In this document: positions 7,264-13,400 of the stretch, piece after piece | Position numbering within the stretch: the first letter of the stretch is position 1 | How the letters are laid out: every line of letters begins with the position of its first letter | Source: Liolophura sinensis | Lineage: Eukaryota > Mollusca > Polyplacophora > Chitonida > Chitonidae | Direction: 5' to 3' | Assembly (NCBI RefSeq): GCF_032854445.1 | Contig: NC_088304.1 | Location: 12,411,704-12,475,703, forward strand | Length of the DNA: 64,000 nucleotides | The notes under the pieces: generated by a model | What the model was told of the DNA's origin: nothing | What the model saw: only the letters and a program-made list of their open reading frames with translations | The model's database searches: none | Program-made: the position numbers and the translations under genes

Positions 7264-7452
7264 TCATACATGTTCTCCGTCCTCATTCTCATCCCCCTCC
7301 TCCAGAACCTCTTCCTGTACTTCCAAGGCTGTCAGCCTCGATTCCATATCCTGGATGATTCGGTCCTGTTTCTTCACAGTTTCTCGCAGTTTCCTCAATT
7401 CGTCAAGAACTTCTTTGGGTTCGAACCCCTCCGGCAGAGCACTCTTGGTTGC
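7264..7452 (-). CDS. CORO1-like: Coronin alternative last exon B (long coiled coil, acidic tail)
   Basis: 62 codons plus [23 protein letters not shown], then [10 protein letters not shown].., R-L-T-A-L-E, and an acidic tail [16 protein letters not shown]. Acceptor TCGCTTAG, same entering phase as exon A. The trimerisation motif lies one heptad further on than in exon A. Used only if exon A is skipped. Exon A lies about 5 kb upstream in the gene, with two minisatellites between. Confidence 0.92.
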   Translation of the reverse strand, partial: ATKSALPEGFEPKEVLDELRKLRETVKKQDRIIQDMESRLTALEVQEEVLEEGDENEDGEHV

Positions 7453-10400
7453 CTAAGCGAACACAACAACAACAACACAGTAATACCACTGATTTTCTGA
7501 AGAAGATTGGTCTTCAATCATACATAGCATGATGTAATCACAAGTCATGTGAAGAAGTTCGAAGTCAACAGGAAGTATACTTGTAAAATGTGAGAAAATC
7601 AAATTTAGTTCAAAAGTATTTATTCATTCTCGACAAACTAAACGGCCTACATGTATATGACTTAAATATACAAATGCTGTCAAATTAAATAGTTCCCTTC
7701 AAGAAAAATTCATTGTTTTATCAGAATTGTTTTCATGTAACTACGTAACCCAAAAGTGTTGAATTTAAACTGTATTTCTGATAGAACTGAATAAAACTAC
7801 TCACTTTCATGTACAGCAAGATAAATACGATGCACTAGTACACTGTAAAACTGTTACCCATTCTACATATGTATACAAGGTAGCCTTCATGTATAATGGC
7901 ATAAACAAATTAGCTTCCGCGCTATCAAAAGGCTATATTTTAATTCATTTGTTCAGCAGAATACACTGTGTGTTAATCTATGTGCACACAATTCGCTCAT
8001 AGCCCACTCACGTAAGGCATACGTGTAAGGAAACATAATTATATTAACATGACCTTCCTGTCATACATAGCTTAACTCAGTACTCTTAATAGATAAATAT
8101 ACACTGTAAGTTATTTCTGGCTCATGAGTTGGTTATTCTAAGTAGCCTAAATTAAAGCTGTATTACTGCGACTTTTAAGTACTATATCCAGGCTCAATGA
8201 CTGCGTCACTATTAAAAGGGCTCAATTATTCAAGTTTCCATGGTAACAGGCTTAACACATGTACAGGTTTTTACATCGATCTTGATACGTCCTGGTTTTC
8301 AGAATAAAGAGTGGAATGGACTCCTCCAGAATTTCAGCTGATAACAGCAAAACATTAGATGCCCTGAAGACATGAAGTCAAGTGTCATGGCTGTCTTACG
8401 CAAACTTTTTACCAACAGCTTCAGAAGACATCGGTTTAATTTTATTTTTATAATTTAATTCAAGGCAAAAAACATGCCATTTGTGGTCTTGACCAAAACT
8501 AAGACCTCAGGAGTCTGGTCACTTGCAGAAAGCATGTGGTGCTTGGCACACACCCAACTACAATGGTGCTGACACGATTTCTGGCACACTAGATATGCAA
8601 TATTAGTTAAAAGCATGTTGCACACTTTACAAAATTAGCAAATCTCAGTGCTTTGCCACTAGAAGGAAAATATTGCAATTCTGTATTATTTGCTTACATT
8701 ATCAATGTAAATGTGTATCTGAGGTGAACTCTTCTGTCCTAAACTCATTAATTTTACATATGCAAATCGAAAGTAATTAGTATGCCATACTCTGGCAAAC
8801 CTGAATATAGCAACAACAACAACAACACATGACTGTTATAAAGACACTCTTGTGCAAACCACACAATAAAAAAAAAGGTGCTCATCCAATTGATGGGTTA
8901 ATTTGCCATGTCTAGCAACTAATGATACAAAACCACAAGTTACTATTAAAATGTGCAGTTAGAAAGGGGGTTTTAGCAACAAAGACACACACAGGATGTT
9001 GAGATTAAGCTTGATATATCATGGACACAAGAAAAAGTATCAATATTTTGACAATTTGTCTCACTGCAACCTTACTGGACACGGTTTGACGGGCTGGGAT
9101 GAAAACGCTTTAGCGACCCCACCCTGCAAAATTATTTAATATCCATTCATTTCAATAATGCCTTAAATGCTGTTAATGTCAACACTTCAGATCATTTTAC
9201 GGTACAGGCCTCAGCAGAGAACATACAGCTAATACCCAAGTCTACCAATGATGATGGACATAGCAATGTGCACTCATGATATAGATGAACCTACAGTACA
9301 GTGCATATTTGCTGGTGAATGACCCTTAACCCAGAGTGATCCGGGCTGAATGGAAGATATGGGCCACTGTGATCACTGTAGCCGACAAGGAATGCGTCGC
9401 TGGCTTTATGATAGCTGAGTGGACAAAATTGCTGTTATTGTGAATGATAAGGAATGGGCTTATATTCACTGAGCCTGGTAAGGAATGAGCCACTGTTTTC
9501 ACTGACCCTAATAAAAAATAAGCCATGTTTTATGGTAGCTAATGCAAAGTAGGATTGAGCCACTGTTATCACTGACCCTAATAAGGAATGAGCAACTGTC
9601 CCCATTGACGTAGAATAAGACATGAGCTGCAGTTTTCACTGACCCTAAAAAGAAATGAGTCACAAATTTCACTGAACATAATAAGGAATGAGCTACTGTT
9701 TTCATGGAATTAATACAAAGTAGGATTGAGCCACTGTTTTCACTGACCGTAATAAGGAATGAGCCACTGTTTTCACTGACCGTAATAAGGAATGAGCCAC
9801 TGTGTTCACTGACCGTTATTAGAAATGAGCCGTTTTCATTGACCCAAATAAGAAATGAGCCACAGTGTTAACTCACCTCAATAACGAATGAGCCACTGTT
9901 TTCACTCACCCCGGTAAGGAATGAGCCACTGTGTTCACTGACTGTAATAAGGAATGAGCCACTGTTTTCATTGACCCTAATAAGGAATGAGCCACTGTTT
10001 TCATTGACCCAAATAAGAAATGAGCCACTGTTTCAATCACCCCAATAAGGAATGAGCCAATGTTTTCACCCAACCCGATAAGAAATGAGCCACTCTTTTC
10101 ACTCACCCCAATAAGGAATGAGCCACTGTTTTCACTCACCCCGAAAAGGAATGAGCCACTGTTTTCACTCATCCCATTATGGAATAAGCTACTGTTTTCA
10201 GTGAACCCAATGAGGAATGAGCCACTGTTTTCAGTGAACCCAATAAGGAATGAGCCACTGTTTTCAGTGAACCCAATAAGGAATGAGCCACTGTTTTCAG
10301 TGAACCCAATAAGGATGAGCCACTGTTTTCAGTGAACCCAATAAGGAATGAGCCAATGTTTTCACTCACCCCAATAAGGAATGAGCCACTGTTTTCACTC

Positions 10401-13400
10401 ACACCGAAAAGGAATAAGTCACTGTTCTCAATCGCCCCGATAAGGAATGAGCCACTGTTCTCACTCACCCCAATATGGAATAAGCTACTGTTTTCAGTGA
10501 ACCCAATAAGGAATGAGCCACTGTTTTCAGTGAACCCAATAAGGAATGAGCCACTGTTTTCAGTGAACCCAATAAGGAATGAGCCACTGTTCCCTTGGCA
10601 GCTAATAAAAAGTAGGACTGAACCATTGTTCCAGTGGCAGCTGATAGGAATGAACCACTGAATTAATGACTGCTGAAATTCATACTGTATTAAGCCTTCA
10701 CATGAAGTACTCTTCTAGGTTTATATGCCTATCTTAATGATACTGTAAGGAATCCCTAGTCGTGTTCATTATAGATAAGATTACAACCAACGGGCCGCTG
10801 TAGCTTGCAAGAATGTACCTGCTGTTGTCAAGGTAGTTAGCAAGGTAAGAGCAACTGTATTCTGTTATTAATGGTAGATTGGTACAAACCTTACGTGACC
10901 AGTACCTTGCCAGCAATGAATGAATAATTATATTCATTCAAATTGATTATACATGGGTGTGCACACATGCAATGCAATAATGGTCGGTGCAGAAACGGTG
11001 ACAAATCTCCTTGCAAACCAGCAGAGACAGATAACTGGCAAATCTCCTATTGCAAACTGGCAGAAGAGACAAATACCTGACAAATCTCCTACTGCAAACC
11101 AGCAGAAGAGACAAATACCTGACAAATCTCCTATTGCAAACCAGCAGAAGAGACAAATACCTGGCAAATCTCCTATTGCAAACTGGCAGAAGAGACAAAT
11201 ACCTGACAAATCTCCTACTGCAAACCAGCAGAAGAGACAGATACCTGACAAATCTCCTATTGCAAACTGGCAGAAGAGACAGATACTTGACAACTTTCCT
11301 ACCGCAAACCAGCAGAGGAGTGAGGACCTGGATTTGAACAAATATTGCATATCCGCAAGACGTCTATTCAAGCATATTCTGAAGGCAATATTCGGGGGAA
11401 GACTGAAAAAATTACATGTTTCTTGAAGCTCTCAAATTGGCTAAACCAATCAATGTACTTTTGTCTCCAAAAACAAATTAAAAATGTGAATAAATTGCAC
11501 TGAAAGTTGCTCCTTCATGTGCAAAAAAGTTACAAGGAAATGTTTTATTATAGTCTAATAGATGAAACAAAGAATGTAATGAATAGAAAATTGCCAGACG
11601 CTCTACAGCGCAGAAAAGAACCGTTTCAACCGAACCCCTAAAACCATTTGAATCAATCAATGCTGTATGCAGTCTAATTGCTTCACACATGACAGGTCAC
11701 CAAATTGATATTTCAATGAAATGAACATCTGGACCCAGTTGTTCCAAAGTGTATTAGCTAATACTGGTCATATTTTACATTTAGCACTTTATGCACTCAA
11801 TAGCATATGCAGTGAAAGGATAACAGCAGGAGTTTCAGTTCCTATGCAGACAAAATTACTTTTGGGTCATATAAATAACTGAAGATTTAAGTTTAATCTG
11901 CCGGTAAGTCTTGATGCAATTTTCAACAAACAGGGCCTCAGTTTTGCCAAGTCATGAATTACAAGTGATGTAGAATCTCCATGAATATTCATGTAATATG
12001 TGCTTGAATATTCATGGATATCAGCTGGAATATTCATGAATTGTGATGCATGTAACAAAAACAATGGAAAAGCGGGTTAAGCTGCCCAATGAACTGTAGG
12101 TGTACCTGACAGCTTTGAGTTGACACTAAAAGACAGGTTTCAGTTTGTAAAGCCCAAACACAAATTAAAAAAGACACAGAAGGATTTAAAAAAAAATTTT
12201 TTTTAAAATATAAAACACTCAAAATGGGTAAACCACCAACACGATAAAAAAAAGCTGCCAATCCAAATTGTGCAATGCAAAAACATGCAACACCCTCATC
12301 CAGATTGTGAAGTGCTGACCAAAACTAAAAGTGAAAGCAAAAGCACTAGTACACAGTATAAACACCTATCATGCAAACCAAATCCTAGAGAATCTAGTTC
12401 AAGGCAGTTAAAACCCATGCAGAGAGACACCGGCACCTGATTGGATAATTACAGGCAGTTTTAGACTTGCTCTATGGCTTCTTCCTCGGAACTCAGCCCT
12501 TCATAATGGGCCCAGTTTTTCTTCCAGCGTCTTTATACGCCTTTCATGGGCTTTCACAATTAGTTTGAGCTTTCGTAAATCATCAACTATTGCCTGTGGG
12601 TCGAAGCCCTGTGAGGTAAGAGAGGAGAAAATGTCAAGCCAAAAAAAAAAAAAAAGAAGAAAAATGAAGACCTATCACAGGCTGATCATTATCATCAAAA
12701 ATGAGAAGAAAATTGATGTAAACAAAGACAAAAAATAAAGCCTACAGGGGTGAAACCATTTTGAATCTGGTTGAGAAAATTATAAACCAACAACCCAAAC
12801 TTAATTGTCATTCAAAGTTTTCCGTAAAAGTGGAGAAAACAAAAAAATTTTCATACATTAATATATAAAACTATTAACTAACTGCTGCAAAGTAAACGAG
12901 GCATTCAGGTGTAAACAGAAATTAATACACAGCTTAAAAGGTACAACTAAATTAAAATTAATAATAATTACACCAAAACACTATATATATTGGTACTTAT
13001 ACTGAGAGTCTTACTCATCTCTAAGAAAGAACACTACATTAAAAAGACAGTGAAAACACTCAACACTGTATTAAAACCACCGTCCCCCTGTTAGAATGGT
13101 AACAATACAATTCCCACTACGGCATTCCGTGTAAATACAAACTGTTAAGTTATATTTGTTCATAGAGTATGCATATACATTATATACAACTGAAGGCTAC
13201 AAGATTTCTCAAAAGGCATAAAACTTCTTGCCATCATGAATCATGATGAATCTTTTTATAGAGATATAGGGTTATCTCCCTTCGTAAATGGCATACTAGC
13301 CCACCAGGTGTAACTAAGCAAAGTGAAATATTAGAAATTGTGGACAGATTATTGAATAGTGCATTTGTGGTGAAAAAGTGGTGAAAAACAGTGCAAATTC

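What the first reader, a model, noticed from the sequence alone, without database searches (positions are those of the whole stretch)
7264..12608. Two alternative coronin last exons encode different coiled coils, with the trimer motif moved by one heptad
Seen directly: exon A ([15 protein letters not shown]..) and exon B ([15 protein letters not shown]..) are clearly related, both follow the same phase-0 linker exon, and each has its own stop. Aligned at GF-P and LRKL, exon A has R-I-K-T-L-E where exon B has I-I-Q-D-M-E, and exon B restores the motif (R-L-T-A-L-E) exactly seven residues later. Established: R-h-x-x-h-E marks trimeric coiled coils in coronin-1. Inference: a tandem exon duplication lets one gene make a short and a longer, acid-tailed coronin that may still form trimers, or sort into different oligomers.
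Basis: partly seen in the sequence, partly recalled or inferred. Interest (0 to 1): 0.8.

Follow-up and report, generated by a model that had tools for sequence, protein, structure and literature searches.

The report
Two alternative coronin tail exons
A mollusc gene for coronin, a protein that controls actin, appears to carry two related final exons, so one gene could make coronin with either a short coil-shaped tail or a longer, acidic one; no transcript data were available to show that both are used.

Summary
The minus strand carries a complete short coronin gene: nine shared coding exons (28502 to 14274), then two candidate last exons in the same phase, A (12608-12501) and B (7452-7264), giving 480 or 507 residues. 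A and B are clearly homologous: 79 against 15 for the best unrelated stretch of the window. Coronin coils from outside the window rank these two first and second. In A and in three of three outside coils the R-h-x-x-h-E motif lies in one column; B lacks the arginine there and has a full motif seven residues later, in the same heptad register. Substitution or insertion of a heptad is undecided. The genome has eight tandem molluscan haemocyanin domains; its second short coronin gene showed one coil exon in 30 kb examined. Most likely these are alternative last exons from an old exon duplication; both tails probably trimerise, and B adds a heptad before its motif and a tail of net charge -9. No RNA or second species was available. 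The sections read of one broad coronin survey report no such pair. New variant of a known kind.

The parts
28308..28502 (-). coding exon 1 (ATG directly after a splice acceptor; DUF1899)
   Evidence: (PF08953, 103 bits), (PDB CORO1C/1B/6/1A)
22139..22391 (-). coding exon 2 (WD repeats)
20699..20874 (-). coding exon 3 (WD repeats)
19961..20077 (-). coding exon 4
18443..18547 (-). coding exon 5
17877..18022 (-). coding exon 6
16551..16611 (-). coding exon 7
15349..15450 (-). coding exon 8
14274..14453 (-). coding exon 9, linker (Ala/Pro-rich end), ends after a whole codon, donor CCG|GTAAGT
12501..12608 (-). alternative last exon A: 35 aa and stop; coil with RIKTLE in the usual column
11544..11549 (-). 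candidate poly(A) signal AATAAA for exon A (chance spacing on this strand about 810 bases, so weak evidence)
7264..7452 (-). alternative last exon B: 62 aa and stop; coil with RLTALE one heptad later, tail of net charge -9
6518..6523 (-). candidate poly(A) signal AATAAA for exon B (weak evidence)

Best explanation
One short (probably class-1) coronin gene with two alternative last exons that arose by duplication of the coil exon. Exon 9 is spliced either to A, whose transcript ends at a nearer poly(A) site, or past A to B. Each choice gives a whole coronin with its own C-terminal coil. Both coils probably form parallel trimers through their R-h-x-x-h-E motif; coil B has one more heptad before its motif and ends in an acidic tail, so the choice most likely changes spacing, stability and partners of the trimer (for example contact with Arp2/3 or actin) rather than whether it forms. 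Read directly from sequence: exons, splice sites, frame, similarity, motif positions. Inferred: use of both, duplication, poly(A) sites, trimer state, effect on partners.
For: Complete gene with GT/AG at every junction and no N in the window. Both tails open, in phase, with coil heptads. Three outside coils (the gene on C2, CORO1C of 7sty, CORO1B of 9qey) rank B first (135) and A second (118) in the window; two shifted readings of exon B follow (55, 44), and the best elsewhere is 41. With CORO1B and CORO1C alone, last column left out: B 91, A 71, shifted B 53 and 32, elsewhere at most 31. A and B differ at 15, 10 and 24 of 35 first, second and third codon positions, as expected if the protein was kept. 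No GTRAG or GTATG in 1 kb after either stop, and an AATAAA within 1 kb of each. Quartets group A with B in 8,928 of 10,000 column resamplings against CORO1B/CORO1C (8,971 without the last column). In 30 kb of the C2 gene one stretch scored 165 as a coil, motif in the usual column, next best 53.
Against: No RNA evidence and no second species, so use and conservation of both exons are untested. With the C2 coil as one outgroup the A-B grouping is weaker (6,731 and 8,636 of 10,000), 28-29 columns are few, and the quartets rest on the ungapped alignment of B. Pfam Trimer_CC gives A 13.9 bits (cut-off 27) and B no match, while B's listed weak matches are to unrelated families, all below cut-off; Trimer_CC also had no over-cut-off match in the whole genome. 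Acceptor B is poorer in pyrimidines (11 of 16) than A (15 of 16), though within the range of the other nine acceptors (9 to 15). AATAAA is common here.
Confidence: 0.72

Rival explanations
1. Only one of the exons is used; the other is a relic of the duplication that still happens to be open.
For: No transcript data; the exon B acceptor has fewer pyrimidines than that of A (11 against 15 of 16), though not fewer than some shared exons.
Against: Both are open over the whole aligned coil although 24 of 35 third positions differ, with acceptor, stop, heptads and a full motif kept in each. A dead exon that old would be expected to have lost some of these.
Confidence: 0.13
2. The two tails differ in oligomer state: A gives trimers, while B, without the arginine in the usual column, gives dimers, tetramers or mixed species, so splicing switches stoichiometry.
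For: PMC3203266 (section 11 read) reports that changing the arginine gives tetramers or a trimer-tetramer equilibrium; PMC3653964 (passages) says that trimer determinants act only inside the trigger sequence.
Against: B has a full motif seven residues on in the same register, and under the heptad-insertion alignment it lacks nothing.
Confidence: 0.12
3. Exon B belongs to another gene or pseudogene lying downstream on the same strand.
For: 5 kb lie between A and B.
Against: B resembles coronin coils, is in phase with exon 9, and its only other match in the genome search is exon A; the DUF1899 search gave three matches in the genome, one of them in this window.
Confidence: 0.03

Closest known systems
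Class-1 (type I) short coronins, CORO1A/1B/1C/6
   Same: Propeller, linker and C-terminal coil; best PDB matches are CORO1C, CORO1B, CORO6, CORO1A; exon A has the motif in the same column as 1B and 1C.
   Different: Two alternative coil exons in one gene; B has the motif one heptad later and an 18-residue tail after it with net charge -9.
Alternatively spliced coronins described by PMC3203266 (C. elegans cor-1, human CORO1C, vertebrate CORO6)
   Same: Splicing varies one part of a coronin; CORO6 has mutually exclusive duplicated exons.
   Different: Those change the linker, the N terminus, or a WD repeat (plus one glutamine at exon 10 of mammalian CORO6); that section describes none that swaps the coil (section 10 read).
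Tropomyosin alternative last exons (recalled; no paper read)
   Same: Mutually exclusive terminal exons encode different ends of a coiled coil of an actin regulator.
   Different: Tropomyosin is a dimer whose ends overlap on actin; here the coil is an oligomerisation tag on a propeller.
Coro7 / WASP central-acidic tails
   Same: Acidic C terminus.
   Different: Exon B's tail has no tryptophan, which the Arp3-binding acidic motif has (PMC12592476 passages).

Membership tests
Short coronin | DUF1899 and WD40_4 around a WD propeller | tested here: met
   PF08953 102 bits (cut-off 20.7), PF16300 80 bits (cut-off 27), PF00400 60-61 bits (cut-off 27)
Short coronin | single propeller, unique linker and short C-terminal coil | tested here: met
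   (from sequence)
Class-1 coronin | groups with class 1 rather than class 2 in a tree | not tested
   the closest four solved chains are type I, but no class-2 chain appears in that listing and no tree was built
Coronin trimer coil | R-[ILVM]-x-x-[ILV]-E at g-a-d-e | tested here: met
   A: R-I-K-T-L-E; B: R-L-T-A-L-E, seven residues later, same register
Coronin trimer coil | Pfam Trimer_CC over its cut-off | tested here: not met
   A 13.9 bits against 27, B none; the model also found no over-cut-off match in the whole genome, second short coronin included
Coronin trimer coil | trimer in solution | not testable with these tools
   structure prediction gave no result and would have been single-chain
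Alternative last exons | two in-phase exons, each with acceptor and stop, no donor after the stop | tested here: met
   (donor test by simple pattern over 1 kb)
Alternative last exons | transcripts ending in each | not testable with these tools
   no RNA data held
Arp3-binding acidic (A) tail | C-terminal acidic motif with tryptophan | tested here: not met
   [18 protein letters not shown] has no W

The most novel reading that the evidence does not exclude
Alternative last exons let one mollusc coronin gene change the geometry or stoichiometry of its oligomer by setting the trimer motif one heptad further along the coil: a splicing-controlled oligomer switch in an actin regulator, possibly shared by other lophotrochozoans.
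Probability: 0.15. Interest if true: 0.75.

Novelty: new variant of a known kind. Interest (0 to 1): 0.45.

Why it matters
A natural pair of related coils in one gene, both with the motif but at different heptads, is a direct test of whether motif place or motif presence sets the oligomer. It would also show that coronin can be tuned at its coil by splicing, which the sections read of the coronin survey do not describe.

Tried and rejected
Pfam Trimer_CC as a detector of coronin coils: too insensitive here; replaced by direct scoring with known coils. PDB search with each tail alone (B; A with part of exon 9): no coronin match. Prokaryote genome contigs with exon B: 233 stretches matched a pattern, none a relative. 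Processed copies as stand-in for transcripts: the 200-residue search gave ten matches, read as single exons on C10, C2 and C8, none spanning a junction as an intronless copy. Flanking DNA (300 bases each side) of A and B: only short matches of E 2.9, so any duplication is old. Structure prediction: no result.

Literature on coil-swapping coronin isoforms: six paper search listings with coronin among the terms showed none by title or abstract start; three of them list only part (20 of 43, 15 of 597, 12 of 30 papers), and the library is open-access only. Two further searches were on coils and tropomyosin without the word coronin (12 of 134 listed, empty). PMC3203266 was read in sections 7, 10, 11 and by passages, not whole; the word beginning mollus- does not occur in its main text. 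PMC3653964 and PMC12592476 were seen by passages only.

Corrected on re-check: the last letter of my CORO1C coil row was not displayed but recalled, and the C2 coil had been found with A and B among the scoring rows; one search repeats the tests without that column and, for the window scan, also without C2.

Full report
Observation. The minus strand of the window carries a complete coronin gene. Nine coding exons from 28502 to 14274 join with GT/AG sites and consistent phases; the ninth ends after a whole codon. Two exons can follow: A (12608-12501) and B (7452-7264), giving 480 and 507 residues. The protein matches DUF1899, WD40 and WD40_4 of Pfam over their cut-offs and its first exon and C-terminal half are closest among solved structures to CORO1C, CORO1B, CORO6 and CORO1A. 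The window has no N.

Homology of the two tails. Exon A against B scores 79 without gaps (15 of 35 identical); none of 200,000 heptad-preserving shuffles reached this, and of 20,885 open stretches in the window the best unrelated one scored 15. Using only coils from elsewhere (CORO1C, CORO1B, and the second short coronin gene of this genome), B ranks first and A second in the window at 135 and 118; the two next rows are shifted readings of exon B (55 and 44) and the best elsewhere is 41. The second gene's coil had itself been found with A and B among the scoring rows, so repeats the scan with CORO1B and CORO1C alone: B 91, A 71, shifted readings of B 53 and 32, elsewhere at most 31. Whole-genome searches with A and with B each returned only the pair; the cross match alone is not significant genome-wide (E 0.11 and 0.26), and its place 5 kb away, in phase, is what makes it tell.

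The motif. In the heptad register where a and d are hydrophobic at 7 of 8 places in A and 8 of 9 in B, A has R-I-K-T-L-E at g-a-d-e. CORO1B (R-I-C-R-L-E), CORO1C (R-I-S-K-L-E) and the gene on C2 (R-I-R-Q-L-E) have it in the same column: three of three outside coils. B has I-I-Q-D-M-E there and R-L-T-A-L-E one heptad on. How it came about is open: placing motif on motif with a seven-residue insert in B scores 75 against 78 ungapped for A, 36 against 38 for C2, 55 against 48 for CORO1C and 57 against 49 for CORO1B, and without the last column 39 against 34, 57 against 46 and 60 against 45 for the three outside coils; all are before a gap cost of about 17, which would turn each to the ungapped alignment. 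The motif occurs 15 times in 121,012 residues of the window's six frames.

Terminal exons. No GTRAG or GTATG lies within 1 kb after either stop, and each has an AATAAA within 1 kb; on this strand GTRAG (1.6 per kb) and AATAAA (one per 810 bases) are common enough that both points are weak. The pyrimidine count of acceptor B (11 of 16) lies within the range of the nine shared exons (9 to 15).

Age and selection. Codon positions differ at 15, 10 and 24 of 35, and the flanks share nothing beyond matches of E 2.9: an old duplication with the protein kept. Quartet scores put A with B rather than with CORO1B/CORO1C in 8,928 of 10,000 resamplings, and in 6,731 and 8,636 with the C2 coil as one outgroup (8,971, 6,714 and 8,662 without the last column). 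With so few columns, and on the ungapped alignment, this only favours a duplication after the split from vertebrates (that the two solved chains are vertebrate is recalled).

Setting. Eight haemocyanin beta-sandwich domains in tandem on C8 mark the genome as a mollusc (family knowledge recalled). The genome shows three DUF1899 matches: this gene, one on C2 and one on C8. The C2 gene (probably class 2; inferred) shows one coil exon in the 30 kb below its last exon found (L008 scanned on both strands, L009 and L010 on the minus strand); its next best stretch scored 53 against 165.

Mechanism. Most likely a choice of last exon by splicing and polyadenylation, giving a coronin trimer with a shorter coil (exon A net +2) or a longer coil with an acidic tail (exon B net -10). 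[quoted passage not shown] PMC3203266 section 11). The acidic tail lacks the tryptophan of Arp3-binding acidic motifs (PMC12592476 passages), so it is not a Coro7-like or WASP-like tail. [quoted passage not shown]

Novelty. [quoted passage not shown] Six coronin searches found no report of a coil-swapping coronin in the rows listed. Gene predictions in mollusc databases could not be looked up, so the isoforms may already sit there unnamed.

Noticed in passing
9465-10591 and 10999-11320: Two tandem arrays (33-base unit, about 34 copies; 42-base unit, about 8 copies) lie in the stretch between exons A and B.
   Followed up: no
17401-17856: 19-base tandem array, about 24 copies, in the intron after coding exon 6, leaving long open frames in several phases.
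   Followed up: no
20915-21818: 84-base (and 321-base) array in the intron just upstream of coding exon 3.
   Followed up: no
42640-43974: Long degenerate array of 17/34-base units.
   Followed up: no
39859-40365: Plus-strand open frame with a U1-type zinc finger (PF06220, 27.3 bits, cut-off 22).
   Followed up: partly
G000:C2:27222700-27222822, minus strand (in L009): Coil exon of a second short coronin gene, motif R-I-R-Q-L-E in the usual column, tail ending GPGESNC.
   Followed up: partly
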